NCBI RefSeq assembly: GCF_001411555.2
Contig: NC_049912.1
Span: 19,452,341 to 19,516,340 of the forward strand
Length of the DNA: 64,000 nt
Source of the DNA: Juglans regia
Lineage: Eukaryota > Streptophyta > Magnoliopsida > Fagales > Juglandaceae
Reading direction: 5' to 3'
Numbering within the stretch: position 1 is the first letter of the stretch; every line of letters starts with the position of its first letter. The notes under the pieces were generated by a model that was given only the letters and a program-made list of their open reading frames with translations, searched no databases and was not told where the DNA came from. The translations under genes and the position numbers were made by a program. Shown here in pieces: positions 16,766 to 45,773 of the stretch.

Positions 16766-17092
16766 TATTAGAGCATGTGTACCTGCCTTAGAGGATAACA
16801 CCTCACAAACCATGTCCCCTGTATCCTTGCATATTCTCAATAGAAAGCCACTTCCATTCCATTCGTATCTTACTCTCAACAGAATGCTAAAACCAACTCT
16901 GCTCAATATAGAATATTGTTGACTCTTCTAGAATGATTCCCTTGTAAACTATATATTTCTTCTATAAATATGAGGATCATTGTATTAAGGAAATATTGAA
17001 TACACTGGAAATATATTTGTTCAGACTTAAGGTATCTTTGATGCATTCCTTCAAGCACCTTTGGTGCACTCTATTTTCTTCTAGTTTTAACA
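16766..17092 (+). repeat. 5' LTR of copia element
   Basis: Begins TATTAGAGCATG (a change from the usual TG start, shared by both LTRs) and ends TTTTAACA. A TATA box, TATAAATA, lies at 16,963-16,970 within the LTR and is the likely promoter. Confidence 0.93.
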
Positions 17093-21376: not shown

Positions 21377-21389
21377 AAACACAGGGGGA
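21377..21389 (+). other. Polypurine tract of copia element
   Basis: AAACACAGGGGGA immediately precedes the 3' LTR, the position where plus-strand DNA synthesis is primed. Confidence 0.75.
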
Positions 21390-21716
21390 TATTAGAGCAT
21401 GTGTACCTACCTTAGAGGATAACACCTCACAAGCCACGTCCACTGCATCCTCTGCATGTTCTCAACAGAAAGCCACGTCCATTCCATCCGTAGCTTACTC
21501 TCAACTGAATGCTAAAACCAACTCTGCTCAATATGGAATATTGTAGACCCTTCTAGAATGATTCCCTTATCAACTATATATTTCTTCTATAAATATGAGG
21601 ATCATTGTATTGAGGAAATATTGAATACACTGGAAAAGTATTTGTTTAGACATAAGGTTTCTTTGATGCATTCCTTCAAGCACCCCCGGTGCACTTGTTT
21701 TCTTCTGGTTTTAACA
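21390..21716 (+). repeat. 3' LTR of copia element
   Basis: Same 327-bp length as the 5' LTR with about 30 scattered differences, including small compensating indels. Ends TTTTAACA at 21,716, followed by the ACAAA target repeat. Confidence 0.93.
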
Positions 21717-22528: not shown

Positions 22529-23588
22529 TATGGGCATGTTACTTCTTGGGAACATGACCAAAATAATTAGTTACAACTTGGTATTGGAAGTCCATTGTCA
22601 AGAATGAATGGAAGAAATAAAGTCAAAAGACATTGACTAACATACAAAAAAGTGAGATATAAAGCAAAACTCAACTACTTTAAAGAATGAAGAATACCTC
22701 TATAAAAAGAGGGGGGTCTCTACAATTTACAAATGTGTAATACCTCGATTGATACACTCTGTTGGGACTCTATCCAAAAGGATAGCATCTTCTTCAATCT
22801 CTCCTTAACCCTATTTTCTCTAATGTATTGAGAGTTATGTGATTTTTTTCTATTGTATAGAGAGTTATGTGAGGTTATAAGAAACTGTAAAATCACCAAG
22901 CATAGTGAATTTCATTCTCAAATGACCTATAGACGTAGGTTTTATATTAAACCACGTATATCTTTGTGTCACTTTCTTTACTTATATCTTATGCGCTTTA
23001 TATTTTATTTAATACATGGATCAACTTATGAGCATCGGATGAATATCAACGCTATCATCTTAGGCCATACGATCGTGCTCTTGGCCTCTGATCATGTTGA
23101 AAAATTGTATCAACAGTATATATATATATGTGTGTATGTATATATATGTATGTGTATATATATATATGTATATATTAGTAAAAGGGGGTGGAAGCACAAT
23201 AAAATTAGTAGGCGATAGAACCAGCCAATAAGAAATACATCTACGGGTCATTCTCAAATGACCCGAAGACATAAGTTTTATGTTAAACTACGTAAATCTT
23301 TGTATCTCTCTCCTTACTTATATCTTATGCGCTTTATATTTTATTTAATACATGGATCAGCTTATGAGCATTGGATGAATATTAAAGCTATCATCTTGGG
23401 CCATACGATCGTGCTCTTGGCCTCTGATCTCGTTGAAAAATTGTATCAACAATATATATATATATGTGCATATATCCATATGTATATATGTATGTGTATA
23501 TATATATATATGTATGTGTATATATTACTAAAAGGGGGTGGAAGCACAATAAAATTAGTAGGCGATGGAACTAGCCAATAAGAAATAA
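22529..23588 (+). repeat. Copia-type LTR remnant with internal tandem duplication
   Basis: A TATA-like CTATAAAAAGAGG at about 22,701 is followed by text typical of the 3' half of plant copia LTRs (GACGTAGG...ACCACGTATATCTTTGTGTC, then TTATGCGCTTTATATTTTATT). That half is present twice: 22,913-23,250 and 23,251-23,588, about 338 bp per unit. Each unit contains its own (TA/TG)n microsatellite. No target duplication or second LTR is seen, so this is a solo or broken LTR with approximate limits. Confidence 0.4.
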
Positions 23589-23890
23589 AATAAGTATACA
23601 AGAAAGTAGATGATTGGAGTTTAAAGGGACCAGATGACTAGAGTCCAAAGGGACTAGATGACTGGAGTAATGTGCAAATAAGTAAATAAACAAAAAATAT
23701 TCAAAATACTCACAACTTATCATTAAAACAGTTGTGGTTGTTATTCATATGATATGAACAACAATACATGGAAAATATTTAAGAATTACATGGGGTGAAC
23801 AAGAAAGTAGGAGAAGACAAGGGCTCTTAGGGTCTGAAACTGCTAAGGGTTCTCGTAATAAGATCCTCCCTTTTAACAAAGCCAAGCCCC
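23589..23890 (-). other. Putative pararetrovirus leader / unassigned
   Basis: Downstream (minus sense) of the TATA motif at 23,891-23,900. No ORF. Contains a three-fold ~22-bp repeat (agatgactggagt/ccaaagggact) at about 23,608-23,668. It may be the non-coding leader of the integrated virus copy or host flank. Confidence 0.35.
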
Positions 23891-23900
23891 CTTATATAGG
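23891..23900 (-). promoter_or_regulatory. TATA-box of the endogenous pararetrovirus (putative)
   Basis: On the minus strand CCTATATAAG is followed by GGGGGCTTGGC. It lies about 220 bp beyond the end of the polyprotein region, in the intergenic stretch. Caulimovirids carry their single strong promoter there to make the pregenomic RNA. The position is suggestive; activity is not shown. Confidence 0.5.
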
Positions 23901-24116
23901 CAAATAATAGCTTACTAGTACAATAATTCTGGGGATGAATAATTATGAATAATAATTTTGACTATTTTGACTATTCATTTGACCAAAGACAAGCTACTGA
24001 AAGTAGGGGTAAAGTAGCGGGAATTTTTGAATTTGTCAGAACTAGCAGCGAGAATCATGGGTTTTTTTAGCAATAATTGTAATAGTTTTTGTTGGTTGGT
24101 ACCAACGTCAATAATT

Positions 24117-24900
24117 TCATCATCAAAGCAGGAGATCAATCTATAGATATCATTGGAGTGGTTTCTGGATCATGTCCGAATATATCATTATAAGGATCAG
24201 TCTTATCAACAGAGGCTTCAAAGGATGCTTTTGACTCATCATCCTGGAGGGACTTCTTAAATCGATAAATTAAATTTTTTTTCTTCAGTCCTTGGAGAAT
24301 AGACTTCTTCTTAGACTTAGAAGATTTACTTGATTTATCATATAAAGTAGGTCGCTATATCGCCTGAGCAATACAATATACAGGCTCTTGCATCATGGTT
24401 TTAGCAATAGGGAATTCTTCAGTACTTTCCAAATTCGGAGAAGTTAGAGGAAAATCTCTAGTAACATTTTTAATGTCCTACCACTCGACATACCAATTAC
24501 GAACAAGAATAACATTTTTCTTAACATAACTCCACTTTATGATCCAGGGAACCTTATATTTTTTGCCGAAGTGAACAGTAACAGGGATTTTTTGACCATG
24601 TTGGTCAGTTTTGTAGACAATAGCAAAATATTTAATAGCAACATTGAGTTTATTAGGGAAGATTTTCGAAATAGGACCAAATTGTGTCCACCATCTCAGA
24701 AACCAAAGGAGAAATTGGGAATTGGATTTTTTTGTCAAAATTGATGAACTATGAATGAGACATCTCAACATTTTGGAATAACATGAGTTTGAACTAGACT
24801 TCAATGTAATTATAGTAGCAATAGGTAAGATCAAAATTAGAGATCTTTTTGGTAACATAGGAATGGGCTCCCCATTTTTCCTCACTAATTAAACTAATAT
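24117..24900 (-). pseudogene. Pararetroviral polyprotein C-terminal region
   Basis: A 135-residue minus-strand open piece (24,885-24,478) contains a tryptophan-rich stretch (LRWWTQFGPI) and a basic stretch (KKYKVPWIIKW). After one stop the translation continues to about 24,117 with a lysine/serine-rich segment. Such a tail follows RNase H in some petuvirus/florendovirus-like members. I base this on position and weak likeness only; the function is unknown. Confidence 0.5.
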
Positions 24901-25514
24901 GTAAACACTGTAGTAGATCAATTTGATCTTATTGGTTTTATAAAAAATGAGTTTAATTAGAATGGATTGTATTTGAGTGAGAATAGAGGAGTAGTGTTGT
25001 AAGTTCTTCTGAATAAGTTCAGGAACCCAATGAAAACCATGAGAAATAGCCAAAAGCTATTTTGGGGGTGGTCAGTATATATTGACCGATTAGTAAGAAA
25101 ATGGAATAGTAGTATTGTAGGATCTTTTGCTTGTCATTGGTGTTTTGTAGAAATTCACAAGTTAAAAAATCAAGGATAGCATTTTGGTAACCTTTAATAT
25201 ATTCAATATCAAAATAAAAAAATATTTGAAACAACTTGCTATATGGAAAAAATATGTTTTGAGGTAATATTTTCAACATTTTTTTTCTAACACATACTTA
25301 GCACTTTTGCAATCAATGCGTAATAAAAAAATTTTGATTTAATAAATTACTTCGAAATTTGGAAATACATAGTACTATAGATAAAATTTATTTTATAATG
25401 ATACTATAATTAATTTATGCACTATTCCAAGCTCCGGAATAGAATTGAACAATTTGTTCAGACGAGTTTGACTAAATATTTTTTTCAAAATGCCACTATA
25501 ACTATTATCGGAGG
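24901..25514 (-). pseudogene. Pararetroviral RNase H, downstream part
   Basis: Immediately inside the gypsy boundary the minus-strand translation shows a YSGILK-type block, which follows the first catalytic aspartate of caulimovirid RNase H. Near 25,150-25,200 it shows the end-of-domain motif IKGYQNAILDFLTCEF. RNase H would degrade the RNA template during reverse transcription. It is cut from its own first catalytic residue by the gypsy insertion and also carries frameshifts. Confidence 0.7.
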
Positions 25515-26095
25515 TGTAAGGGGACTTTCCTGCCTAGAAAGGCCCATTGGATTTTGGCCCTAATTCAACCCAGCCCACGGATGCCCCAATACGAATAGGG
25601 AATAGGGGGTCTACCAAGGAGGGGCGCCGTATGGGTGACAAGACTGATCAGCCTGACACTCCACGGCCGACTTCAGAACTGGGGGACCTACACAGAGTAT
25701 GGCAAAAAACGCAGAGAGCCTTTGATCTATTGATGTCAGATCATCTACGGCACGCATGTTTTGGACAAAACCAAGAAACCACGCCACATTAAAGGAGGTC
25801 TGACACCCGACGTAGGAAAGATGGCACGGACTTTGTGAAGGAGAATACTATTTGATGCCTTTCCCAGGCCATAGTATAAATAGCTTGTTCTAGGTTCCAA
25901 AAATCTCTTTGATCCCTAGACTCCCTAACTTATTTGCAACCCTCTAAGAATATTTACTAACTTTGGCATCGGAGGTTACCTGGCCCCTAGGCCGCCCTCT
26001 CTAAGTTGCTCATCTCTCCATCTTTTACAGGCCCATTAACGAAGACCTGAGTTGTTGGAGTTTGGCTCAAAGGTGTGCGAAACACAACATTAAGA
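25515..26095 (+). repeat. 5' LTR of Tat-type gypsy element
   Basis: Begins TGTAAGGGGAC and ends ACATTAAGA (the 3' LTR ends GTTAACA). A promoter-like TATAAATAG is at about 25,874-25,882. Text such as GCCCATTGGA, GGGGGTCTACCAAGGA and CACTCCACGG is shared with the 3' LTR. Confidence 0.85.
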
Positions 26096-26096
26096 G

Positions 26097-26113
26097 TGGC
26101 ACCTTCTGTGGGA
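26097..26113 (+). other. Primer binding site of gypsy element
   Basis: TGGCACCTTCTGTGGGA lies one base after the LTR. It resembles the TGGCGCC(G)TCTGTGGG primer region common in Tat-type plant elements. Confidence 0.65.
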
Positions 26114-26196
26114 TCGTAATAGATCTTGCGTGGTTTTCGTGCACTCGAGACAACTCGTTCTAGGCAACTCAGAGATTTGTCGAAGCTATTCGAGAC

Positions 26197-26352
26197 ATGG
26201 AAACACGCCAAGCAAAGAACCAGGCATGCAGGAATGGAAAGGTCGCAATGGGAGAAGACCATGCATACGCAAATGAAGCACGACACACAACAGGGGATGC
26301 TAGCACTCTGCCTCCAGCCCCCGATCGCGCGGAGGTTTTAAGCAAAGCTTGA
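26197..26352 (+). pseudogene. Gypsy gag N-terminal stub
   Basis: A 51-codon frame (METRQAKNQ...) sits where gag should start. It ends at a TGA and is followed within about 50 bases by text that belongs just upstream of reverse transcriptase. Nearly all gag and the protease have therefore been deleted. Confidence 0.55.
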
Positions 26353-26451
26353 GATGAGCAGGAGCTTTGAAAGGCCAAGCCAATCGGTCCCCTAGAACTT
26401 GTCACCCTCCACCCAAATTGACCATAAGCTACGGTAACAATTAGTAGCGAA

Positions 26452-27273
26452 ATGAAGTCCGAGGCTCGAGATGCCATGCAGCGACTCCTCGCTGAAGATT
26501 TGGATGTGTTCGCATCGAACCACAGGGACATGCCCGTGATAGCGCCTGAAATCATATATCCCAGCTTGAGTGTGGATCCAAAAGCGAAAAAGGTGTGGCA
26601 GAAGCGCCGAAGCATCAGTGCGGAAAAGAATGCTGCAATAGCCGAGGAGGTAGACCGACTGTTAAAGGCGGGGTTTATCCGAAAAGCTCACTACTTGGAG
26701 TGGTTTTCTAATGTAGTGCTAGTGAAGAAGCCGAGCGGCAAATGGAGAATGTGTGTCGACTTCACTGACCTCAACAGAGCTTGTCCAAAGGACAGCTTCT
26801 TGCTTCCTCTCATCGACCTCATTGTCGACTCGACGGTGGGTCATCGCATGCTCAGCTTCATGGATGCCAACTCAGGGTATAACCAAATTTGTATGAAGCC
26901 CGAAGATGAGGAAAAAACTTCATTCATCACAGACCGAGGTTTGTATTGCTACAAGGCGATGCCCTTCGGTCTCAGGAATGCGGGGCCCACCTACCAGTGG
27001 TTGGTCAACTGTATGTTCAAATATCAAATAGGAAGAAATATGGAAGTCTTCATGGACGACCTGTCGATCAAGAGTAGAACCTTAGAAAAACATTTGAATG
27101 ACTTAAGAGAAGTTTTGGCGATACTGCGGTAATACCGAATGAAGCTGGACCTGGTAAAGTGCACTTTCGGTGTCGAGACGGAAAAATTCCTGGGATTCAT
27201 GGTTTCCAAATTAGGAATCGAAGTCAATCCCGAGAAGGTGGAAGCCATCCTCAGCATCGTGAAATATAAATGA
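26452..27273 (+). pseudogene. Gypsy reverse transcriptase (Tat type)
   Basis: Shows VWQKRRSISAEKNAAIAEEV, then the RT blocks WFSNVVLVKKPSGKWRMCVD, TDLNRACPKDSF, LSFMDANSGYNQI, FGLRNAGPTYQW and the catalytic box VFMDDLSIKS (MDD instead of the usual VDD/IDD). After the stop at 27,130-27,132 it continues with KCTFGVETEKFLGFMVSKLGI. RNACPKDSF and DA.SGYNQI are typical of plant Tat lineages. The enzyme copies element RNA into DNA; a nonsense codon near its end and the loss of gag/protease make it inactive. Confidence 0.9.
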
Positions 27274-28240
27274 AGTACAACGGCTGGCTGGGCGAGTAGC
27301 CGCCCTCAACAGCTACATCTTAGTATTAATTGACAAATGCCTACTGTTCTTCAAAGTCTTACGAAAAGCGAAGACATGGGATGGTGAGTGTGACTAGGTG
27401 TTCGAAGCCTTAAGAAGTACCTCATGAGCCCTCCGCTTCTTAGTCAACCCAGGTGCGGGGAAACATTGATCTTGTGCTTGGTTGTCTCCCTTTAGGTGAC
27501 TTCTTCAGTGTTGGTACGTGAGGAAGAAGGGATCCAATAGATGGTTTACTACATCAGCCGGGCATATCGGGGACCCGATACCCCTGCATAGAGCAGTTAG
27601 CCAAAGCTCAATGACGCCAATTAAATTGGCATTCAAAACAACAAATAATGAAGCAGAATACAAAGTGCTGCTTTCATGATTACAGGTAGCCAGAGCTCTA
27701 GGAGCCACCGAAATCGAAGTTTGGGCTCTCAAATGGTAGTAAATCAAGTGCGATGGGAGTTTGTTGTGAAGAGTGAAAAGTTAAGGAGATATCTAGCACT
27801 GGTAGAGGCTGAGCGCCCTCACTCCAAATACTTCCAAATTCATCAAGTACTGAGAATGAAAAATCAGAAAGCAGACAAACTGGTGTGCGCAACATCCGGT
27901 CAGGAGAACTCCCCTCCCAAAAAATAGGGTGATTAGAACAGTAGAAGTACCTGCTGTCGAACTCAAGGAAATGGAAGTACAACATGGGACTCCACATTGG
28001 GCAGGGGACATAATTAGGTATTTGGAAACCGGCAAGGTACCTGAAGACCTGAAGAAGGCAAGAAAAGTTAGGAATCGGCACGCCACACAGTGATCGAGGG
28101 GATCCTGTACTAATGGGATCATTCGACACCTCTTTTAAGGTGCATCTCCCCGTAGGGGGCACAATACGTGTTAGTAGAAATACACGAGGGAGGGTAGGCG
28201 CTAGCTGGAAAGGTGATGAAGGCGGGTTACTACTGGCCTC
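27274..28240 (+). pseudogene. Gypsy RNase H and connection remnants
   Basis: Scattered minority frames show the connection region (ALRRFLVNPG-like at about 27,430). At 27,640-27,735 the RNase H signature NNEAEYKVLLS..QVARALGATEIEVWAL appears, then a C-terminal YLALVEAERPHSKYFQIHQVLR..NQKADKLV segment. Multiple stops and frameshifts are present. Confidence 0.7.
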
Positions 28241-29130
28241 AAGCCATGCAAGATACCAAAGATTTTGCATGGAGGTGTTAGAGGTGCCAGGAATACGCCC
28301 GAATCCCCCATCGCCTTGACCGTTTGCCCAGTGGGAAGTCGATTTGGTCTACCCACTTCCCTCGGGCGAAGGAGGAGTCAAGTTTGTGGCAGTGGTCGTG
28401 GACTACTTCACCAAGTGGGTTGAAGCTGAGGCCTTAGCTACTATCACTACGAGCAATATCACGCGATTCCTATGGAGGTCAGTGATTTACAAGTTCGACG
28501 TCCCACACACTATCATCTCGGACAACGGAAGACAGTTCAATTACGACCACTACCGAAATTGGTGTCGAGAATTGGGGGTCAAGTTCTAATACTCATCCTC
28601 GGGACATCCTTATTCCAATGGGCAAGTCGAGACAACCAACAAGATGCTGATGAGAATGCTCAAAAAGTGACTTGAAGACTGAAAGGGAGCATGGGTCGAG
28701 GAGCTCCCCACCGTGTTATGGGCGTATTGGGTCACGATGAAGACACCGATTATGGAAACTCCTTTCACCTTCACATATGGTCATGAGACAATGCCACCAA
28801 TAAAGATTGTGCGCCCCACGTACAGAGTACATCACTTTGAGCAAGAATCCAATAGTGAAAGTCTAGAAGAACATCTAAACCTGTTGGAAGAAGTCTGATT
28901 GGAAGCTGAGATAAGGGTTGCAACCAACAAAAGAAGGGCCGAAAGGTGTCCTTAACAAGTGTGTGCAGTTGAGAACATTCAAAGTCGGGGAACTAGTACT
29001 CAAGGAAAGCTAGGCCCCCGATGGGAGGGCCCCTACATGGTCATTGCCACAAATCAATGGGGCTCCTATCACCTCAAAGACTCCTAGGAAAACAAATCGC
29101 CACACCTGTGGAATGCCTAACATCTGCAGA
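28241..29130 (+). pseudogene. Gypsy integrase
   Basis: The zinc-binding tail WRCQEYA and PSGKS precede the catalytic core. The core runs 28,344-28,589 with VVVDYFTKWVEAEAL and HTIISDNGRQFN, carrying the first two acidic residues of the DDE triad. The region with the third (YPQSNGQVE-like) follows after a stop, at about 28,595-28,640, and then comes LWAYWVTMKTPIMETPF. It would integrate element DNA. Stops break the frame near 28,587 and 28,668. Confidence 0.85.
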
Positions 29131-29259
29131 AATATTACTACTAAGCCGATTTTCTTGTCAAAGTTTTTATGTGTCCTCATGCACTTGTTACTGGCCCTAA
29201 TAAAAATATGTTTTTGTCTTGTCTCAATGATTAATTTTAGGAACATAAGATAATGCACA

Positions 29260-30375
29260 AGGGGAACTCTCTCTCTCGCAAAGCGGTCTACCCCTCAGCA
29301 AAGTCAACTTCATTAAATGAAAACTCCAACAACTTACCTCCCCACGAGACAAAAAGGGAAAGGTAGGCTTGAAAGGTTGCCTTATCCCTCTCATGGAGGA
29401 GTGCGGGTTGGTCCTCGAACACCCGAAGATAGAAATTCACCTTTCTCGTAAACATCAACAGGTGGGAGCGGGTCCAGTAACAGACTACCCGAACGACTTA
29501 CCTCCCTGCTGGAGCCATGAGCGGGAACAACCTCATGGCTCCCCAAATGAATTACCCCGACCTCTGATGCAATGAAGTGTGGGACCAGCACCAGCTTGGC
29601 CCAAATTTACCATTCCCTGTGATATCAACGGGCGAGAGCATGTCTAGAACAAATTTCCCAAACTACTTACCTCCCCACGAAGGATGATAGGCTAGTAGAC
29701 GGCTCAATCTCCTTGTTCGGGATAGTGGGACCAGCCCCAAGGTGGCCCAAATAACTTCTCTTAACCCCCATCATAGTGAAGGAGTGGATCAGCCGCATTG
29801 CAGTTTGGACTACCTCCTAATGGGACAATAGAGGGAAATGTAGGCATAAAAGTTGCCTTATCCTTCCCATGATGAAGTACGAGTTAGTCCTCAGCTACTC
29901 GAAGGAAAAAGCATTTACCTTCCTCGTGAACGTTAACAAGCGGGAGCAGGTACATTAACAAAATATCTCAAACAATTTACCTCCCTCTGGGACACCATAG
30001 GGAAAGGTAGGCCTGCAAGGTAGCCTTATCCCTCCCACAGTGGAGAGCTGGATCAGAAACCCTCCAGTAACAGACCACTCGAATAGCTTACCAACCTGCG
30101 AGATATTATAGGAAAATGTAGGCCTAAAGGTTACCTTATTCCTCCCGCAACGAAGAGTGGGTCCAGCCCCAATGCTACCTAAATGTTTACCCCTACCCCT
30201 GCCGTGGCAAATGAGTGGACCAGTTAAATCACTGTTGGACCTCTCCCTAGTGGGCGAAAGATTGGTTTGGCATGAGACATTCCGACCTCTCCCCAGTGGA
30301 GAGTGGGCCCAGCCCACGGGATGCCCAAACAAGGAAGTAAGGAAGGAGGACATCATCACCACATAGAACGATGGT
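29260..30375 (+). repeat. Degenerate tandem repeats downstream of integrase
   Basis: A recurring block of about 110-165 bp contains cttacctccc, then gggaaaggtaggc, then ggttgccttatccctc. Copies start near 29,333, 29,500, 29,663, 29,808, 29,976 and 30,087, interleaved with gtgggaccagc/gagcgggt text. Such hypervariable tandem repeats are known from the region after pol in Tat elements and can seed satellites. Confidence 0.6.
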
Positions 30376-31099
30376 ATGGGAAGCTCAAGTTTGTAACACT
30401 AATTCCTAGGTCAAAAAGGCAAACATAAGGCCACCATTGGCTCCTAGCGACAACATGAAGAACAAAAATCTAACAAGGAAAATGCTAAAAACTATAGCGC
30501 CACGAACAAGGCCGACAGAAAGAATGCAAGCCGAAAGGCCATTAACTGGCGAGGTCGTCAATTGCGACCAGGCGCTGGCGGGGTGGATCGTGAGAAATGT
30601 CGCAAGACAAGCCCTCACGGCCAAACTCTACCCAAGCTGGCCCATTAAAAGGGGGGGAGAGAAAGAAGAAAGGATACAACGAGAATAGTACAAAAACCAT
30701 ACAGCCGGGTACGATCAATGAAAAATAATTTTATTGATTATCGAGTACTACAAGAAACAAGTTACATTATAAAAGAGTATAAAGCCATAGGACTATAAGG
30801 AACAAGTTATATCATAAAGCTCATGTCTTCAACAAAACAAGTCTCAATGCCCGATTGTACACCTAGACAATAAAACGGCTAGGGCTAACCTAGAAAGACC
30901 CCAAGACCACACTGTTCTCGGACCAATGTAAAACGGGATAAGCCAAAATCCTCCAACAACGAAGAAGATACCGTCAAGAATCGGAACATCTTAGAATTGA
31001 TTTTGACATTGAGAACCACTTACTAGACGAAGGTCGTTCACCACTGCAACCAAGCCTGATCGAATCACTATTCCATGCAAAGCAGTGGGCAAAGGTCTC

Positions 31100-33360
31100 C
31101 ACCATTACGACGTGTCAATAACGCTTGAGGTTACTTCGAAACATCGACAGGGATGTATTGAGGCAACTAATTGAGTCGCATGGTGATTGCATCATCTGAG
31201 AAGCCCCTAAAATAGCCCATCGACTGTGGAGAATGACTTCAAAGTCGAGCCCCATATGCAAAAGGGAGAGAACGAGAACAAGGTATTCGCAACACCAACA
31301 ATGGAGGACTGACAAGGAGATTTGCCTGGAAAACCCACCCTCAACAAGCGGGTTTGTTCCCCGTAGGACTATCACCAAGGCCACTCGGAATTAAACCCTT
31401 CCTAAGAATGTTGTGCCACCATAAGGACTCTTCGTGTAGGGGAAAATTCCCCACGCTCATAGCTCGGAGGTCAAACTGGGGCTTTTTAAGAATGAAGGTC
31501 TTCATCCACTCCAAGCTTTCTGTATAGCCAAATTTCCACGTTTCGTCATGGACCCCACGAACAGAAGATAGCTCATCCCATAAGCTTTGAAGAACAACTT
31601 TGCAATCTTCGAGGACCAGCTTATTCACTTCCAGGGCAGCCTTCGCATCTTTCCTTCGCTGCCTTTCCTCCTCTAGGGTCTTCCTCCTTGTCGTCGCCAA
31701 CTCGTTAAGGTTTTGCACTTGGGTCTTGAGCCATTTGATCGATCGACCATCTGTGTCCCACTGTTGGTGCAGTTCTAGGATATCAGCCTACAATCGCTCC
31801 AGCTTTGACTAGCACTAGTCTATAGATCACTATAGCGTGTCCCTCATCTTGCAAGCAAGCGAGGCCTCAATGTGTACCTCGCCAACCTCCCTTTGGGATT
31901 TGACTAGGTAGGTTAGGGTTTCTTCAGCAGCCTCCTTTTGCTTTCGCTCGGAGGCCGCACAGTCCAAGGCCACCTGAACCAGCGAACGAAGGTCCCGGTT
32001 CTAGTTCCTTAGCACTACTTGGCTCTCCACAATGAAGGCCGCCAGAGGCTCTAACCTCTACTGAAAAAAGCCCGATCAAAAAAAAAAAAAAAAGGAAGGA
32101 AGAAAGTGAGAAGGAGAGAAGAGAGGGAGAGAGAGTCTGAGGAACTGGCAAGCAAGTTTTACCCCTGCAGATAGCCTCCAGATTCTCCCCACCATCCTGT
32201 GGAGACGGTCGGCGCGGCCGTGCAACACGATCATCCGAGGGTCTGCTGGAACTCCTTCAACGGTTCCTCCGCTCGCTCTATCGTCAGGCATACCAGGTGC
32301 CATGATACCCTCGCCCTAAAGAATGGCTTCAGTCGCAGGGGTAGTGTCGACTGCAACTCTTTGAGCCGGCGCCATGGTGCGAGGAGGATTGGCTAATGAC
32401 ACCGTCTTTTCAGGCACTTTTAAGGGTGTCAGGATCCAAAGCACCAGAACGGACAACCCCCAGAAGGAATTGGGGCATTATCAAAGTCGACGGAAACAGG
32501 CGAGGCCCTACGTGGTCTTTTCCCCTTCCATCAATCGGCAAACTCAGGGAACGACTACGAACGGATGGAATAATCGGGTTCATTGGAATACTCGCATCGG
32601 AGCGCAGATTAGTGGGAGGAGCCAAATTCCGACAAAGACAGCCCTCCGTCAATAGAGCATCCAAATAAACATTGCCTGGATGCACCTTCACCCATGCTCG
32701 AACGACCCCCAATCTCAACTTCTCAGCAGGGCTTGGCTCAGGGTGGCTGATAGAGTCATCATTTACAGTACCTCAGTTGGCACGTACGTAAAACAGGCGC
32801 TTAACAATCTGCCCGATCGGGTTCTCCCATCCATCACCCCAAAAAAAGAAGAATCTTCTAGTGTATCCCTTCACAACCGTATGCTGCTCCTCTACCCAGA
32901 CCAGTCCCTGAACCAGCTGGAAACTATAGATGTGCCAACCCTTCTGCACTAGGTTATGAGTAATAAAGAACTCATGGGCTGTGAGGTCAGGGAAATCCGT
33001 TCCAGCCTCCTCCAAAGCGTGGCGCGAAATTACACAACAGAAGATTAGAATCCTCCATGTGTGGGGAAGAAGCTGAGTGAGCGTTAAATCAAAGAAACTC
33101 AGCACTTCAAGCACTTGTCGGCAAAATTGCAACCCCAGGTCACAGGAGAACATGGCGGGGTACACCACCACTTTAGTACCAAAACCTTTAGAATCCACCT
33201 ATCCGTTAGTAGGGGAAGGCATTACGAACTCCATGTTTGAGGGGATCCTGTTGGTCTCCCTCAACTCCTCCAATTCGACCGAGGTAACCACTGATCGCTA
33301 TGAAAATCCAACAAAGTCATCTAGAAGGGAGCCGCCACGGCCGGCGGCAGCTTGAACAGT
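31100..33360 (-). pseudogene. Antisense extra coding region of the Tat element
   Basis: On the minus strand, 33,198-32,773 translates to a segment with LTQLLPHTWRILIFCCVI and ARHALEEAGTD-like text. 31,718-31,341 translates to a coiled, basic stretch (TLEEERQRRKDAKAALEVNKL) followed by GYTESLEWMKTFI. This order (N-terminal helical domain, disordered middle, coiled coil) fits the antisense ORF known between integrase and the 3' LTR in many Tat elements, annotated in databases as gypsy-type or transposase_28-like protein. Stops divide it. The function of this ORF family is unknown. Confidence 0.55.
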
Positions 33361-33795
33361 GCCTGAGGGCCCCACCCATTCAATAGAACTCGAGGATTTC
33401 TTTGGAGCCAAAAAGGACAGAAAGAAATGGAAAGGAACTTTGGAAGAATATAATGGGCTTCTCAACGTGAAAGGGAATCCTTATATAGGCGAGGATGGCG
33501 ATTGCCCTCTCGAGACATCATAACTCCGCATATCTCCTCGTGTCCCTTTCAAGTACCAGAATCCTTCGGCATATATACTGATATAATGTGTGAAATTAAT
33601 GGGTGCGAAACGCAAAATCCTGACGCAGAAGTTGAAGGGGCACCATTCAGTGCAGCAGCGTAACTGACGCTGTGTTTCCATGTATACGAGATGCGAGGGG
33701 TCGTTCAGCGTGCGACAAGGAGGACTGGGAAGTTGGCAGAAAAGTAATAAAAAGAATTCTCCCCGAACTCGCTCGGGAGGAATTGACGGGGTAAC

Positions 33796-34406
33796 TGTAC
33801 AGAGATTTTATTGCCTGGAAAGGCCCATTGGACTTTGGCCCTAATTCAACCCGGCCCAAGGATGCCCCAATATGCATAGGGTATAGGGGGTCTACCAAGG
33901 ACGGGCGTTGTATGGGCGACAAGACTGATCAACCTGACACTCCACGGGTGACTTCAGAACCAAGGGACTTGCACAAAGTATGGTGGAAAATGCGAAGAGC
34001 ATTTTATCTATTGATGTCAAATCATCTACGGTGCACATGGTTTGGAAAGAACCAAGAAACCACGCCACATTTATGAAACCAGGACAGAGCCACGCCGCAT
34101 TAAAGGAGGTCTAATAACAGACACAAGAAAGACACCATGGACTTTGTGAAGGAGAATACTATTTGACGCATTTCCGAGGCCATGGTATAAATAGTCGATT
34201 CCATATTCCAAAAATCTCTATGATCCCTAGACTCCCTGACTTATTTGCAACCCTCTAAGAATATTTACTAACTTTGGCATCGGAGGTTACCGGGCCCCTA
34301 AGCCGCCTTCTCCAAGTTGCACTCTTCTCTATCTCTTGCAGGCCAACTAACGAAAACCTGAGTTGTCGGAGTTTGGCCCAAATGTGCACGAAACACGACG
34401 TTAACA
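33796..34406 (+). repeat. 3' LTR of Tat-type gypsy element
   Basis: Starts TGTACAGAGATT, ends GACGTTAACA. It is 30 bp longer than the 5' LTR. The extra bases lie at about 34,071-34,102, where ccacgcc(a/g)catt is duplicated around aaaccaggacag. Numerous point differences from the 5' LTR suggest age. Confidence 0.85.
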
Positions 34407-34780
34407 TGAGGCATCAATTTCAACAATTTTGAATGATTAACAGTAGGAATACCAAGATAGGGCAGTGTCTTGACATGTGTTTTAATATGTTCAACAAGAG
34501 AAGTATGAATATTAGACCAAGGATGTGGATTAGATTGTAATCGCTCAAATAACGGTTTACAGTGATTCCTTAGGTCGTTGTAAAACTCAACAACATAATT
34601 TAATGACCTAAGAAAATTTTGTATATAACTGGATTTTATCAATGATGACATCATGTAATTTATACACAAATTGGATAGCTCTATTAATAAGACAGATTTG
34701 TCTGTAAAAAGTATCATAACCAAGAAAAGGAATCTTGGTTTAAGATAATTTGATTTTCTTAGCTGAGTCAATAAGACCAT
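34407..34780 (-). pseudogene. Pararetroviral RT-RNase H connection, to the gypsy breakpoint
   Basis: The minus-strand ORF shows FLRSLNYVVEFYNDL, then KPLFERLQSNPHPWSNIHT and KTLPYLGIP, the conserved caulimovirid connection before RNase H. Close to 34,413 lies the codon for the first RNase H aspartate in a GATGCCTC context, and there the gypsy element cuts in. Confidence 0.8.
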
Positions 34781-35350
34781 TTCTTTTGATAATATCTAGA
34801 AATGAATACAAATGTTTCTAGTGTTCATCAATAGATTTAGAATAAATGAAAACATCATCAACGTAAACAATGGTAAAGTGGCTGAATGATGACATCATAA
34901 TATTCTGGAATTCACCAAGCACATTCTTAAGACCAAAGGGAATAACATTTTACTCATAATCACCAAAAGGAGCGGTGACAACAGTCTTATAACTATCAGT
35001 CTCACCAATCTAGACTTGCCAAAAACTAGACTTCACATTAAACTTAGAAAACATTGTAGCATCACTTAACCCATGGATCAAGTTATTATTATTGGGAATG
35101 AGGTACCTAATCTATTCTAACACTTTGTTTAAAGGTTTGTAATTGATGACTAAGCGATATGTTCCTTTCTCAATCTCAACATTTTTCAGAACATAGAAAA
35201 CAGAACACGATCAGGGTGACTTACTATGCCTAATAGTAGGGATATCTTTCTCTAAAAGATATTCAACATTAGGTAAAGTAACATTATGTTTTTTCCTATG
35301 TCAAAAAGCATTTGAAAAATCAAAACAGATATCATCAATTAGTTTTTTTT
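34781..35350 (-). pseudogene. Pararetroviral reverse transcriptase
   Basis: The minus-strand text contains FSKFNVKSSFWQV, then TAPFGDYE, IPFGLKN and the catalytic YVDD at 34,854-34,865. In-frame stops occur, for example one just after the WQV block near 35,012. The enzyme would turn pregenomic RNA into DNA. Identification by motif order is firm. Confidence 0.82.
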
Positions 35351-35479
35351 TGGTTGAAATTATCAATTTTTGACTATAACAGATTATCAAATAACGATTC
35401 AGTAATTTTTTTGTATTTGATTTCTTGCTTTAGAAAATTCAAATATTTACTCTCAGCAAAGATCAAAGCATTCAAACAA

Positions 35480-35900
35480 TCATTAGTGTCAATATCAAAC
35501 TTTGAAGCAAATTTGAATTTTACTTTCTGGCCAAAATGGTCAGTAGTAATACGGTATTACTAATACCATCACGCTCAGTAAGAAATGGGTATAAAGTAGA
35601 AATAAAAGAAATTCCAAGAATCACTTTATCAGCCATATTTTTAACAAAAACAGAAGGAATCTTGAAACATACATTGTCTTGGCAAACATTGGCATTTTTT
35701 AGTTCATATTTGATTTTCATTTGGGAACCACTAGCAGAAAATAATTTTTCAGAAGATTGTTTGTAGTATTGATTAGGTATTATATCTTCTTAAATACAAT
35801 TCATATCAGATCCTGAATCAAAAGAAGCAACAACATTGAATTCAAACTAATGAAAAAGAATAATCTTAACTTTGAAAAACCATTTTAGTGAAATGTGATG
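35480..35900 (-). pseudogene. Pararetroviral aspartic protease
   Basis: The active-site triplet D-S-G is encoded on the minus strand at 35,811-35,819 in a context FDSGSD, and GISFIST-type text follows at about 35,600. It lies between the knuckle and RT as in caulimovirids, where it matures the polyprotein. Frame breaks follow. Confidence 0.7.
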
Positions 35901-36555
35901 ATCAATCAAACAAATTCTATCAGTATCAGAAGGAGGTTCTTGATGATTGGGGTCAGCACCATCATCTCGCTCATCGTTATTGGAAGCATTGTGTTGATCA
36001 AACTGTTTTTCTACTTTCAAAAGTAGTATGTCTTGTTTCAAAGTGTTATTATTAGTTTTGATATTGTTAAACTCACTTTCGAGTTGAACAATTTGTTTTT
36101 TAATAGAAACAATCTTGTGTTAGAGATCATTAGCAAAGATTTCTTTGGATTTATTCTGATTGAATCTTTCTAAAATATCACCAAGGCAAATTTTAATTTT
36201 AACACTCTTATCATGTTTTTCTCGCATCATGGTTTTTCTTGAGTTTTCGAAGATATGCTTCCTTACGCTTAGGATTGATGATTTGTCCTATCAGGGTAAT
36301 CAAAAGATTTTATTGTTTGTCACATTTTGTCATGACATTAACGATTTTACAGCAAGAATCATTGGAACCAATTTTAATATTGGAGGAATCAGATAGATCA
36401 GTAGTAGAATGATAGTCAAAATCACTTGAACTAAATTCATTGATATAAGATGATTAAGAAGATTTCAATTCCTTAATGCGAATCAACTTTTCTTTAACAG
36501 TTTTATCAATGTCTAAATGATTTATGCTACTTTTCATCATGCTAGAATTATTAGT

Positions 36556-36597
36556 ATAGTCTTTACTAAAATGACCATATTTACCACAATTAAAACA
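36556..36597 (-). pseudogene. CCHC-type zinc knuckle with last ligand changed
   Basis: The minus strand encodes CFNCGKYGHFSKDY: C-X2-C-X4-H-X4 with tyrosine where the fourth ligand, cysteine, is expected (TAT rather than TGT). The knuckle at the coat protein C-terminus binds RNA. The change would impair zinc binding and is in keeping with decay. Confidence 0.75.
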
Positions 36598-36639
36598 TTT
36601 TCCTTTAGTAGGAGTTTTAGAAAAACATTTTTTGTAAAC

Positions 36640-37219
36640 AGGTTTCTTTTGTAAAATTCATCATGGTTTTTAAACATGAGTTTTTTGGATTTATAAAATT
36701 TATCAGGGTTTTTGTAAAAAAAGGTTTTTCCTTTTTATACCTAGAATGAGCAACAAGAGGTTAGCCAAATTGTTCACAAAAGTTTCTCATTTCATATTTG
36801 GTTTTTTAGTATTTTTCAACTGTTGACGTAACATTTTTTTGTCATTACACATGGTGATACCCATTTTTTTTTTAATAATACTGATAATGTCACCATCTTA
36901 TCATAATTAATGAAACCAATAGTATCAGTAAGTTCGACTTTTACTTTATGAGGAAAAATGTGAGGTAGTCCGTCAATGAATTTCTCTTTCCAATAAGATT
37001 TCAAACTATCTTCCTGGAACATAACTCTGAAAATGAAAACATATTGATGCCATCTACAATTAGACATAGTAGGACAACGTAAATTATTCAAATAATCACT
37101 AATATGAGTCGTAACTTTAGAAGGAATACCGATAAAATGTTTAATAAAAGTATAAAACAAGTATTAACACCATTAGGGATACCCTGACCAATAGTAGTGT
37201 AAAAAATAGGCATACCATA
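36640..37219 (-). pseudogene. Pararetroviral coat protein, downstream part
   Basis: The 115-residue minus ORF (37,160-36,816) includes YLNNLRCPTMSNCRWH, VMFQEDSLKSYWKEKFIDGLP and FPHKVKVEL. This is the conserved caulimovirid capsid core. It forms the shell around viral DNA. It continues upstream beyond the inserted solo LTR at 37,220-38,658. Confidence 0.75.
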
Positions 37220-38658
37220 TGTAACCCAACAATTTTAAGGTTGAAATATTGATAATTTTTATTAGACCTAAATTATATTTAATGGGAATATTGGATAAGC
37301 CCACAAGTGATAAATTATTGAATTTGATTAGGAGTTTTAATTAGGTTCAATAATTATATTAAATCCCATTTATTATTTATTGAACGAGTTAGACTCCTTT
37401 TAGAATTTAAAGATCGACCATTCAAAAGTTATTTCAATTTAAAATCATTTCCGCTAATCCTACATTGAATGAGTTACTAGATCATATTTTTAAATTCAAA
37501 CTCTCTTCTTGAATGATCGCGATCGGTCCAACTCGAACTCGAACTTGTCAGCACACTCTCCCAAATCTCTATATAAATATCTCAATTCTGTGTTATTTGG
37601 AAAACAAAAATCATAAACCTTCATAAGTGCAGTGACCAAACTCCAAATACCCAGTCCAGCACCGTGCGTGTCCCACGTTCACCACGACAATAGCCAACTG
37701 CCTCATTCCTCTCACAATATCCCTAGCATTTTCTCTCTCCTTCTAGTTTATATGATTGATTTCATCCCGAAAATGTTGGATTAATGCTGCGAGATAAGTA
37801 AATTAATCATAAATTAAGATTCATAAATCGCATTGATACTATACATCTAAATGATTATCTGATTAACTATTCTAAACTTGGATTACACTTGATATTATGA
37901 AACCTTACGCGTCTTATGCAATATAAGATGCATAATATATACACATAACTATAATATGAGGAGTGAAAGGTGATAAATGATGTGCTTGCAAATATCATAA
38001 CATGGATGGTACGTAAACATTGGCTTCTAAAGAACTAGCGTTAATGATAATATATACTAGAATACTATTAGCGGCTCCCCTGTGGTAGCGGGATGTGGGG
38101 CTACTGCACAACCTTTCACACATGGTTAAGTGTGTGTGCCAGCAAGATAAGTATGATAAGTCAGATAAATCATGGCAAGTCATAGCATACATATGAACAA
38201 TCATGATTTTAAGTTCTCAGCGTAAAATATTTTATGAAAAATCTTAAGTTAAGTACATTTACGTTATGATAGGTTTCTTACTGAGTCATCGACTCATTTG
38301 AGTTATTTTATGTTTTTAAACCACCCTAGGTCAGAATATTTATGAAGGTAGAGCTGCAGGACTGGACTTAGTACAAGGAGACGTGACAGTGGCCTAGATC
38401 ATGTACAAAGATTTTAGGTTATGATTTTTATGACACGAACTTTGAGAAATTTTTTATAAAAGCTTCCGTGAACTCTCATTTATGATTTTAGTAGTTTAAT
38501 ACAAAATGATTTTATCTATTCTATTGAATCTTTTGTACTTGGTACTTCCTTTAGAATAAATGAAATTATTTTTAAGTTAGGTTCAATAGTAGCACTCCGA
38601 TTCTTGAGAAATTCTAAAATTGACTTTATTCTTAACTGTGGGGGAGCAGGGTGTTACA
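37220..38658 (+). repeat. Solo LTR (Ty3/gypsy type) inside the coat-protein region
   Basis: Starts TGTAACCCAAC and ends GGGGGAGCAGGGTGTTACA. It is flanked by CCATA (37,215-37,219) and CCATC (38,659-38,663), a 4-of-5 target duplication. It carries a TATA motif (CTATATAAATATC at about 37,569). TGTAAC...GTTACA ends with a G-rich tail are common in plant chromovirus (Tekay-like) LTRs. No internal gypsy genes or second LTR exist, so this is the product of LTR-LTR recombination. Virus reading frame text resumes on both sides. Confidence 0.65.
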
Positions 38659-39100
38659 CCATCATTATGATGCCTAACAACATTTCTGATGGTTTCTCTT
38701 AAATCATTAGTAAGATTTTTATCCCACCAATGATTAAAAGTAACAAAAAACCGAATAGCTAATAGATCAACAATTTCAATATGACTAAGATTATGATTAG
38801 TAACATAAGTACCATAGACATATTATTCATCTTATTAGGGATTTCTTGTTAAGATAATCCATCAATTTTCCATCATACAACTTATCAGCAGAAACATAAA
38901 CTGTGTTTGAAAAACTTGTTCTTCAAAGTGTAAATTAGGAGGAGTAGATTTGGAATACCAATTTTTTGTAAAACTCATGGGATTAGCTTTTCGAGAAAAC
39001 CTTTTTATATCGGGTTTTACTAAATCAAAGTTTCCTAAGTTTTTTTTCAAGTAAAATAATATCTCAATCAATAGAAGAATCATAAGATTTAGTTTCTGAA
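38659..39100 (-). pseudogene. Pararetroviral coat protein, upstream part
   Basis: Minus-strand translation shows a KNWYSKSTPP region at about 38,960 and a HWWDKNLT-DLRE region at about 38,730, typical of the N-terminal half of the capsid domain. It abuts the solo LTR. The frame meets the downstream part at the insertion site. Confidence 0.6.
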
Positions 39101-39955
39101 TCTTTATAAGAGATTACCTTCTTACCTTTACTAGTGATAGTATCTGTAGTGCCCCTATTAAAAGCTTTAGTATTCTCAGTTTTTACTTTTTGTAAATCAG
39201 AAAACATTTGGTCAATTTTTTAGTAGTTTTGGCTTAATTAGTTTTGAGACTTAGACCTTGCATTGTTTCAGGTAAATTGACCAAAGATTTTTCAATCTTA
39301 ACATAAGAAGCAAGTTTTTCAACTTTTCCCTCAATACGGTCTAATTGTTGGCCAATAAAATGCAAAGAGTTATTGTCAAAATTATTTTGTTCAACAATCT
39401 TCTTTGTTTCAACAGAAGTAGAAACATTAAGACTAACAACTGGAATTTTAAAAGAAGCCTTAACCTCTGCTCCTTAATGGTTAATAGTCGTCTCAAGAGG
39501 TGGATGGCTTGACTGAACAAAATCGATTTTGACAAAATTGTTTTTTTCACCATATTTAAAGTATTCTTAGAAATATTTTTTGATAAATAATAGTTTTTAA
39601 CAAAATCAAAAAATAATATATGTTTTCTCATATCATGCATTTTTTCTTTTCATTTCCTTTTAACCAATAGTTTTTCTTTTTCATCAAAAATAGCATGATA
39701 GCATTTTCTTTTTTTCTTTGTTTTTAATAGAAATATACTTTGTATATAAAGAAGTTAAATCAATTTCAAAAGCTCTATTTATAATTGATAACTGGTTGTG
39801 AATAATAGGAGTAGCAAAATCAGAAGCAGTAGGAGACATAGAAGAGGTCTCTTATTCTTCTTTTTCTTTAACAACTTAATATTTTTTTAGATAAATATGC
39901 ATTTTTAGTAGTATAATAAGTCGTGCTAACGTTGGAGGCATTACTAGCAATTCCT
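39101..39955 (-). pseudogene. Pararetroviral linker with coiled coil
   Basis: Between movement and coat proteins, the minus strand encodes a helical stretch with QLDRIEGKVEKLA at about 39,330 and a lysine-rich region. In related viruses a virion-associated coiled-coil segment sits here. Identification rests on position and heptad pattern. Confidence 0.5.
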
Positions 39956-39959
39956 TTTA

Positions 39960-41029
39960 GCTTTACATTAGGCGTAACAGTACTTTCTGAAAATCATTGA
40001 GATCTTAATCTCTCATTACTAGATTTTCTGAAGTAGTAGATACAACTAGATAATTTATTCTTTGATTGATCAATAGAGGCTTATCAACCTTAGTATCAAA
40101 ACTTATTTTAACAGTTCCATCATGATATTGCTGACTATAATCAAGATTAATCTCACCAGAAACAAACTTAACAAACTGAGATTCATGTTCCAATAACCAT
40201 TCATTAGGAAGAGTGATATCTCTCCAATGAATCATTTTTGAAATTTCGATCTTAGCATCAAGAGTAAAACTTTGAATTAGCAAAGTTTTATCAATTGAGT
40301 TTTTTAAAACAGCTTTAGGATTTAAATTAGTTTTCAATACTTTGTAATAAATATGATAAAAAGTGATAATGAGTTTACTCCCTTCATCAATATCATAACT
40401 AGATGTCAAAATATTTAAAGTTAAACAAGGATACTAGGATCATCCAAAGTAAGAGTTAAATCAGAAAAACAATCAAAATGTACAAAATCATTAAACAAAG
40501 ATGACTAAATCATACCGACTATATTAGTTTCAAATTTCTTGACTCTAGCTTCACTTAAACACAAAGCCACAGAATAATGAATTCCCTTGTGGGTAAGAGG
40601 CTTAACGACAACTTGAACCAAGCTGATATATATAAATATATATATATATATTTATATTTATATATATATATGCATGAACTTATAACCTTTAATAAAAAAA
40701 TCATGGATAGATTTTCGGTTAAACAAGCAACATTTTCATGGGTTTTGAAAATAGCATAAGTCTGTTCAACAGTCTTAACATTAAACTCAGTCTTAAAGGA
40801 AGACTGAATCCAACTAATTTATCAATAGCCTTAGCATCAATCTTTTGGAATACTCCATTTATTGAAATCAGGACAATCAAATTCTTCAACAGGATAGTCT
40901 TCCCCATTAATAATATCAATAGGTAAACTAGATCTGAATCTAACAGAAGAATTGGATCTAAACATTCTATTTATCTTAAATCCGTCCAAAATCCTAAGGT
41001 TAACACTCACTTATCATATTTTCAGCCAT
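39960..41029 (-). pseudogene. Pararetroviral movement protein (30K type)
   Basis: Starts at an ATG at 41,029 that is followed by a stop within ten codons. Later frames hold FDCPDFNKW, HYSVALCLSEARVKKF at about 40,585-40,540 and ITFYHIYYKVLKTNLNPKAVL at about 40,380-40,315. IHWRDITLPNEWLLE and YHDGTVKISF then appear at about 40,240-40,100. These blocks are typical of 30K-superfamily movement proteins that open plasmodesmata. A (TA)n-rich insertion at 40,620-40,680 and many stops disrupt it. Confidence 0.75.
40620..40672. repeat. AT microsatellite inside viral movement-protein remnant
   Basis: TATATAAATATATATATATA-type run interrupting homologous text on both sides, followed by gcatgaac. Confidence 0.8.
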
Positions 41030-41542
41030 AGTTCGTAACACATACCTTAACCAACCCTCTACTTCTCTTGCCCTAACGCTCTCTCTGGCTTGATGGGCCT
41101 CATTGTTCAGTTATGGGAATACATTTTACCTTATAAGGTGATGCCAATGGAGACAAGAAATAGACACAACAAAGTAAGTGATAAGAATAGGAGAATAGAA
41201 GATTGGTCAATGAACAAAAAGAGTTGAAACAATAATCTATAACATACATACATACATACATATACACACACATACGATTATGGATTTGTGGAAATGCATC
41301 GGTTCTTCCAAAATGAGGCGCAATCGATGGCAACATTTTGGGTAATTTGCATTTTCATTCTAGAATTCCTTTTTTTATCCAAATTTTTAAACTTGCATCC
41401 TCACAGTTGAGTTTAAGATTCACTTTACATATATATAAAGACCAAATACCGATCACCAATAGTCTTTTATCACTCAATTATCCCATTCCAATGAGCTCAC
41501 AACTTATTGACATTTACAGCTGATCTCAAGAGTGATGATGTT
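41030..41542. other. Spacer between pararetrovirus and LINE
   Basis: Possibly the viral leader for the first part. A (CATA)n run lies at 41,243-41,275. No gene was recognised. The 5' copy of the LINE target duplication is at 41,528-41,542. Confidence 0.5.
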
Positions 41543-44800: not shown

Positions 44801-45773
44801 CTTCCAAAAAAGGGGACTTCTCTGTGGGCAATGCATACAACTTGCAGTTAGACAGACTAAAGAGTTTACAAGGTGAAAGTTCAAAGGAAGGGTTTGTGGA
44901 TGAAAGATGGAGCAAGATTTGGAATCTTACAGTTCCTAGTACAGCAAAAATTTTCCTTTGGAAGGCTGGGAACAACTTATTGCCAACAAAGGAGAATTTG
45001 TTCAGAAGAAAGGTAGTGACAGAAAAATCCTACCCAATCTGTTTTGCAGAATCTGAAACCACTATGCATGTTCTTTGGGAGTGTCTAGCAGCTAATGATA
45101 TCTGGGTAGATACAAGATGTGGAGTTCAGAAATGGAATAGAGTAGAAGCTGACTTTATGCTACTATGGGAGAAGATGATAAACAAGTTGAGCAAGAAACA
45201 ACTAGAACTTGTGGCAGTGTTGTTCAGAAGACAGTGGCTAAGAAGAAATCTGTTTGTGTTCGAAATTAAGATAGTTTGCCCCAAAGTATTGCTGCAGAAG
45301 GCAAGTGAATCTTTATTTGACTATAAGGCTGCTCAAGCCCTTCTGAAACAGACAAAACAAAGCCAAGTGGGTGGAAGGGGTGTATTGAAATGGGAAAAAC
45401 TAGCTACTGGTTTGGTAAAGATAAATTGGAATGCTGCTTTGGATGTGAAGGGTAGAAGAATGGGAGTAGGAATTATCATTAGGGATGAGGAAGGGGAATT
45501 TGTACTGTGGATAACCCTATGGTGGCAGAGAGTTATGCTTTGAGGTTGGCTCTAGAACTGTGTGGTGAACTTAATATTCAAAAGGCAATTTTCGAAGGGG
45601 ATGCAAAATCAATGATTATGGCAGTCCAAAGGGAAGCTGAGGAGCTGTCTATGGTGGGTTCTATAGTGGAAGATATAAAGTTTTCTTTTCACAGGAGGCC
45701 TAATTGGCAATTATTTTTTGTTTTTAGAGAGAAAAATACTATAGAACACATGTTAGCTATAGAAAAGCTTTGA
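41812..45773 (+). pseudogene. LINE ORF2: endonuclease, RT, zf-RVT, RNase H
   Basis: The ATG at 41,812 opens MKIFNWNC, with two early TGA codons where conserved arginine and glycine should be. The APE-type endonuclease follows (PNLVFIMETKS, GWCIVGDFNEIL, then RLDRAM and SDHKPLLM). RT blocks include KAHGPDGFGPCFYQNHW, IKLDMSK, KRGLRQGDPLSPYLFI and catalytic FADD at about 43,843. A zinc-binding reverse-transcriptase domain (KIWNLTVPSTAKIFLWKAGN..) lies at 44,910-45,110. An RNase H domain (KINWNAALDVKG..GVGIIIRDEEG) starts at about 45,418 and continues to a stop at 45,773. A poly-G run at 42,255 causes a frameshift. Confidence 0.88.

What the first reader, a model, noticed from the sequence alone, without database searches (positions are those of the whole stretch)
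24117..41029. Endogenous pararetrovirus split by an antiparallel Tat-type gypsy element
The minus strand carries movement protein, coat protein, knuckle, protease, RT and RNase H in caulimovirid order. The virus copy is in two pieces (41,029-34,407 and 25,514-24,117) with an 8.9-kb gypsy element between them. The flanks GGAGG/TGAGG and continuation of RNase H text on both sides show one original copy. Together the pieces make about 6.6 kb, close to a full caulimovirid genome. This is a datable insertion stack.
Basis: partly seen in the sequence, partly recalled or inferred. Interest (0 to 1): 0.75.

Follow-up and report, generated by a model that had tools for sequence, protein, structure and literature searches.

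The report
Virus fossil split by two retrotransposons
A decayed copy of a plant DNA virus sits in this plant's chromosome and was later broken by two separate retrotransposon insertions; it is an ordinary kind of genomic fossil, useful mainly for putting old events in order.

Summary
The core finding holds. The minus strand carries a decayed endogenous caulimovirid (movement protein, coat, zinc knuckle, protease, RT, RNase H, C-terminal region). A plus-strand 8,892-bp Ty3/gypsy element (25515-34406) splits it at RNase H. None of 9 same-genome relatives has the gypsy there; in 7 of 9 the two flanks meet within 20 bases, and in one an open frame runs through. Corrections: (1) three virus pieces, not two: a 1,439-bp LTR-like insert (37220-38658) also splits the coat region; it belongs to a high-copy family, and none of 6 relatives covering the site has it. 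(3) Virus homology runs on to about 23650-23690 and to 41189, about 7.2 kb. Relatives' RT and RNase H match a caulimovirus-type enzyme better than Ty3; the gypsy RT does the reverse. Gypsy LTR divergence is 0.155, roughly 5-31 million years by assumed rates. Genus is unresolved. A new member of a well-known kind; low interest.

The parts
23648..25514 (-). Virus piece 3: second part of RNase H, C-terminal region, 3' part
   Evidence: P0001 homologous to 24792-24364; nucleotide homology to relatives down to 23690 (L098) and 23648
25510..25514 (.). Target-site copy GGAGG left of the gypsy
25515..34406 (+). Ty3/gypsy element, Tat/Retand-like, with no room for a normal gag-protease
   Evidence: LTR pair; RVT_1 7.1e-20 and rve 6.1e-15; Ty3 best match of RT
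25515..26095 (+). Gypsy 5' LTR
26428..27132 (+). Gypsy RT frame
   Evidence: RVT_1 E 7.1e-20
27652..27927 (+). Possible extra RNase H of the gypsy
   Evidence: RVT_3 E 0.034, below cut-off
28320..28589 (+). Gypsy integrase core
   Evidence: rve E 6.1e-15
32773..33198 (-). Antisense frame in the gypsy's pol-3'LTR region, possible Transposase_28
   Evidence: PF04195 E 0.0078, below cut-off
33796..34406 (+). Gypsy 3' LTR
34407..34411 (.). Target-site copy TGAGG right of the gypsy
34407..37219 (-). Virus piece 2: coat C-terminal part, zinc knuckle, A3-like protease, RT, first part of RNase H
   Evidence: coat homologues to 37216; zf-CCHC 36454-36657 above cut-off, Peptidase_A3 E 0.0012 below cut-off; RVT_1 E 0.0017; relatives
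37220..38658 (-). 1,439-bp LTR-like insert, probably a solo LTR, TGTAAC...GTTACA, flanked by GATGG/TATGG; its nt 603-837 are inverted relative to 11 of 11 other copies aligned
38659..41189 (-). Virus piece 1: movement protein, spacer, DUF7746/coat N-terminal part
   Evidence: movement-protein homologues cover 40726-39993; DUF7746 E 1.4e-4, below cut-off; relatives to 41189

Best explanation
A caulimovirid genome of about 7.2 kb was captured in a plant chromosome, probably as filler DNA in break repair near a TA-rich site (inferred from the literature and from simple repeats near both ends). It is one of many related copies in this genome. It decayed by stops, frameshifts and small deletions. 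Two LTR retrotransposons later inserted into it, each with a near-perfect 5-bp target duplication: a Tat/Retand-like Ty3/gypsy element, antiparallel, inside RNase H; and another element of which one LTR remains, inside the coat region. Shown: that the virus was whole at both points in its relatives and that both inserts are absent there. Inferred: capture mechanism, solo-LTR nature of the second insert, Tat lineage. Unknown: which insert came first. The locus is unlikely to have any viral function now.
For: Movement-protein homologues, 5 of 10 matching PF01107 at E <= 0.03 and 3 of 10 above its cut-off; coat homologues, 15 of 16 listing DUF7746 and/or the coat domain; relatives' RT and RNase H nearer the caulimovirus-type enzyme than Ty3. 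Gypsy site: flanks meet within 20 bases in 7 of 9 relatives, gypsy absent in 9 of 9; L074 frame open across the site. Second insert: homologous proteins run from 38655 to 37216 without a break; of 6 relatives covering the site, 3 abut within 5 bases, 2 keep the expected spacing, 1 has lost about 0.2 kb; none has the insert. No integrase match in 19 virus-strand pieces scanned and no LTRs around the virus.
Against: Both target duplications have one mismatch in five. The window's own RT fragment does not separate caulimovirus from Ty3 (22.3 v 22.0 bits); its RNase H pieces and one relative's frame found nothing in solved structures. No tRNA-Met primer site near the virus in the window. Of the 12 slices fetched, L090, L096 and L100 showed no match and L099 only a short one.
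Confidence: 0.95

Rival explanations
1. The minus-strand element is an old Ty3/gypsy-type retrotransposon with captured movement-protein-like sequence, not a virus.
For: RT and RNase H of the two groups are related; the window's own RT fragment scores equally with both.
Against: No integrase match in 19 pieces, no LTRs, caulimovirus coat domain in homologues, relatives' RNase H at 70.3 v 31.7 bits.
Confidence: 0.02
2. The two segments beside the gypsy come from different virus copies that happen to lie side by side.
For: The target duplication is imperfect (4 of 5).
Against: The same two segments are contiguous in 7 of 9 relatives, and one frame is open across the point.
Confidence: 0.02
3. 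The 1,439-bp insert is a short complete transposon rather than a solo LTR.
For: Among the 40 scored copies I saw no two places within 20 kb except at C12:10.84 Mb, where parts of more than one copy lie within about 3 kb (tables), so no clear LTR pair was seen; 5 of 7 checked copies are 1.5-1.8-kb units with perfect 5-bp duplications of their own.
Against: TG...CA ends, 5-bp duplications and a TGTAACACCC start are usual for plant LTRs (the last recalled); only 40 of 1,851 first-look candidates were scored, so pairs may have been missed.
Confidence: 0.2

Closest known systems
Endogenous caulimovirids of plants (clade B type polyproteins: petuviruses, florendoviruses)
   Same: Order movement protein, coat with zinc finger, aspartic protease, RT, RNase H as described for florendovirus ORF1 (PMC4241990, passages); many decayed copies per genome; simple TA repeats near the ends (PMC10377300, section 12).
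   Different: This copy is broken by two LTR-type insertions. Its genus could not be tested: no reference RT set was on hand, and reading frames are too decayed to tell one ORF from two.
Retand/Tat Ty3/gypsy elements
   Same: Long region between pol and 3' LTR (about 5.2 kb here; 2,933-6,566 bp in PMC11963269, passages) with antisense frames.
   Different: No room for a normal gag-protease; the Transposase_28 and RVT_3 matches are below cut-off.
Nested LTR retrotransposons in plants
   Same: One repeat inserted in another; 1,491 nested pairs in 12 genomes (abstract of PMC6911290).
   Different: The older repeat here is a virus fossil.

Membership tests
Caulimoviridae | 30K movement protein (PF01107) | tested here: met
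   Through homologues: 10 homologues of 40005-40433, 3 of 10 above the PF01107 cut-off; the window piece itself has no Pfam match
Caulimoviridae | Caulimovirus-type coat domain and zinc knuckle | tested here: met
   zf-CCHC above cut-off, coat domain below cut-off in the window; 15 of 16 coat homologues list DUF7746 and/or PF22909
Caulimoviridae | A3-type aspartic protease | tested here: inconclusive
   Peptidase_A3 18.9 bits against a cut-off of 21.3
Caulimoviridae | RT-RNase H of caulimovirid type | tested here: met
   Relatives: 78.9 v 63.7 and 70.3 v 31.7 bits for 8r0s v Ty3; window fragment itself 22.3 v 22.0. That 8r0s is cauliflower mosaic virus is recalled
Caulimoviridae | No integrase and no LTRs | tested here: met
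   No rve match in 19 virus-strand pieces; no repeat pair around the virus
Caulimoviridae | tRNA-Met primer site upstream of the movement protein | tested here: inconclusive
   Absent in the window; 11-of-12 matches upstream of the movement protein in 2 relatives, L093 and L095, no chance control for these
Petuvirus or Florendovirus | Place in the RT-RNase H tree | not tested
   No reference RT set was available
Tat/Retand Ty3/gypsy | Ty3-type RT followed by integrase, LTRs, 5-bp target duplication | tested here: met
   the duplication has one mismatch
Tat/Retand Ty3/gypsy | Extra archaeal-type RNase H; long pol-3'LTR region; antisense Transposase_28 | tested here: inconclusive
   Length fits; RVT_3 E 0.034 and Transposase_28 E 0.0078 are weak; no lineage tree
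LTR retrotransposon (1,439-bp insert) | TG...CA ends and 5-bp target duplication; paired copies around a coding region | tested here: inconclusive
   Ends and duplication met in the window (4 of 5) and perfectly in 5 of 7 copies; no clear pair seen among 40 scored

The most novel reading that the evidence does not exclude
Endogenous caulimovirid copies in this genome may be preferred landing sites for particular LTR retrotransposons: the 1.4-kb LTR family sits inside two virus copies at different points (window 37220-38658, and about C1:35965394-35967048), and gypsy sequence like that in the window lies beyond the virus end of a third copy (L094). Chance is not excluded: the LTR family is very abundant and only a few virus copies were looked at.
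Probability: 0.05. Interest if true: 0.4.

Novelty: new member of a known kind. Interest (0 to 1): 0.15.

Why it matters
It gives one well-bounded locus where the order, virus first and retrotransposons later, is shown by relatives without the inserts, so comparison with related species could bound the age of the viral capture. It also shows how an unnoticed LTR can inflate the apparent length of a virus fossil. It changes no general view.

Tried and rejected
Rejected: a gypsy origin of the minus-strand element; two unrelated virus pieces; a segmental duplication between this locus and C1:35.96 Mb (that copy lacks both inserts at these points, has the same LTR family at another point, and in the 40 kb fetched showed no match to the window outside virus and LTR sequence apart from one short inverted match to 22853-23011).

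Led nowhere: IMG/VR searches with the C-terminal piece, the coat piece and P0015 (no relatives); a primer-site scan of IMG/VR, 66 contigs, 0 of 66 with a tblastn match (E <= 0.01) to P0001-P0027, the gypsy RT or the 43-residue viral RT piece; solved-structure searches with coat and RNase H pieces of the window (nothing relevant) and with 34412-34795 (caulimovirus-type enzyme best but E 0.49). The own-genome search with the gypsy LTR did not complete, so the gypsy's copy number and intact relatives are unknown. The RT query did not complete and was answered in 67; the LTR-insert query did not complete in 71 and was answered in 74. Each time the same request was repeated.

Full report
What was checked. 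The finding claims a caulimovirid copy on the minus strand, cut in two by a plus-strand gypsy element. The window is C12:19452341-19516340 of a 571-Mb genome held without a name.

The gypsy element. Two direct repeats, 25515-26095 and 33796-34406, are its LTRs. They are flanked by GGAGG (25510-25514) and TGAGG (34407-34411), a 5-bp duplication with one mismatch. On the plus strand between them lie RT (RVT_1, 7.1e-20) and integrase (rve, 6.1e-15). The RT's best solved-structure match is Ty3 at 91.4 bits, against 46.9 for chain 8r0s, 'Enzymatic polyprotein' (that this is the cauliflower mosaic virus enzyme is recalled). Only 333 bp separate the 5' LTR from the RT-bearing frame, so a normal gag-protease has no room. 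About 5.2 kb lie between the integrase match and the 3' LTR, inside the 2,933-6,566 bp given for Retand elements (PMC11963269, passages). Weak matches to Transposase_28 on the antisense strand (E 0.0078) and to RVT_3 (E 0.034) fit a Retand/Tat element; an extra RNase H is reported for plant Tat elements (PMC5348765, passages). Tat-type is likely, not proven.

The virus. Stop-free minus-strand pieces gave a zinc knuckle above cut-off, and DUF7746, Peptidase_A3 and the caulimovirus coat domain below cut-off. The piece 40005-40433 has 10 homologues at E <= 1, 9 of them below 1e-16; 5 of 10 match the movement-protein family PF01107 at E <= 0.03 and 3 of 10 pass its cut-off. The piece 36816-37163 has 16 homologues, 15 of which list DUF7746 and/or the coat domain. 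The C-terminal piece 24478-24888 has one homologue, 54% identical. The window's own RT fragment cannot tell the two groups apart (22.3 v 22.0 bits), and its RNase H pieces found nothing. Frames from same-genome relatives do: RT 78.9 v 63.7 bits (L068), RT end plus RNase H 70.3 v 31.7 bits (L074), caulimovirus-type first in both. A third relative frame found nothing (L076).

One virus, split by the gypsy. Of 9 relatives (L068-L076), 7 show window positions 25514 and 34407 meeting within 20 bases; L076 meets with about 180 bases missing; L070 is not aligned just there but leaves only about 330 bases between its matches. None of the 9 has the gypsy. The L074 frame runs open across this point. So the segments were one virus copy and the gypsy came later.

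Coat homologues match the window down to 38655 and again from 37216, with their own residues running on (for example P0013 residues 6-56, then 55-79). The stretch 37220-38658 starts TGTAACACCC, ends GGGTTACA and is flanked by GATGG/TATGG. In a scan of 35 by 40 border positions it was the only pair with TG/CA ends and a duplication of at least 4 of 5. It belongs to a large family: 1,851 first-look candidates, 40 scored. Of the 11 other loci fetched, both ends could be located in 7; 5 of 7 have perfect 5-bp duplications, one 3 of 5, one 1 of 5. Its segment 603-837 is inverted relative to 11 of 11 other copies. Six virus relatives cover the site: L089, L091 and C1:35967780 abut within 5 bases, L093 and L095 keep the expected spacing with no room for the insert, L097 has lost about 0.2 kb there. 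None has the insert. A solo LTR is the likely reading.

Ends and size. Relatives carry virus homology to 41189 (L097) and 23690 (L098), and to 23648 at the edge of a fetched slice. Simple TA or CATA repeats lie about 50-120 bases beyond these ends, as is documented for endogenous caulimovirids (PMC10377300, section 12; PMC4241990, passages). No tRNA-Met primer site was found near the virus in the window. One-mismatch sites stand upstream of the movement protein in L093 and L095, and the L093 site recurs at the other end of the same copy (L094), which suggests that the C2 copy is terminally redundant (no chance control). An exact site in L069/L100, about 1.3 kb past the RNase H point, is unassigned.

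Dating. The gypsy LTRs differ by K2P 0.155 (s.e. 0.018) over 576 aligned sites. With rates from 1.5e-8 to 2.5e-9 per site per year (recalled; host unknown) this is about 5 to 31 million years. The virus is older. The second insert is neither dated nor ordered against the gypsy. The review PMC10377300 (passages) warns that LTR dates can mislead through gene conversion and poor calibration.

Copies. The RT stretch had 363 first-look candidates, of which 40 places, the window's own among them, were scored; the nearest relative is 79% identical over most of it. Such abundance is usual: the abstract of PMC13308828 (section 7 also read) reports 47,135 endogenous caulimovirids across 75 genomes. PMC5766536 was seen in passages only.

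Verdict. It is a normal kind of plant genome fossil. The paper searches (listings seen) were not meant to show that no such nested locus is in print, and no such claim is made.

Noticed in passing
C1:35965394-35967048 (L103 and L068): Another virus copy carries the same 1.4-kb LTR family, inserted at a different point (beside window-equivalent 36546); a further break of about 5.8 kb lies at window-equivalent 24085.
   Followed up: partly
37220-38658: Nucleotides 603-837 of the insert are inverted relative to 11 of 11 other family copies aligned.
   Followed up: partly
41848-45543: Plus-strand LINE-like relic beside the virus: endonuclease (below cut-off), RVT_1 and zf-RVT matches.
   Followed up: no
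22912-23587: Two tandem 0.34-kb units, 88% identical, each with a TA array, just beyond the virus 3' end.
   Followed up: no
16765-17092 and 21389-21716: Direct repeat of about 330 bp, 91% identical, 4.6 kb apart; possibly the ends of another LTR element.
   Followed up: no
51804-54566: Cluster of overlapping diverged direct repeats.
   Followed up: no
L093:1460 and L094:941: The same primer-site-like 22-mer at both ends of the virus copy on C2, suggesting a terminally redundant or tandem copy.
   Followed up: no
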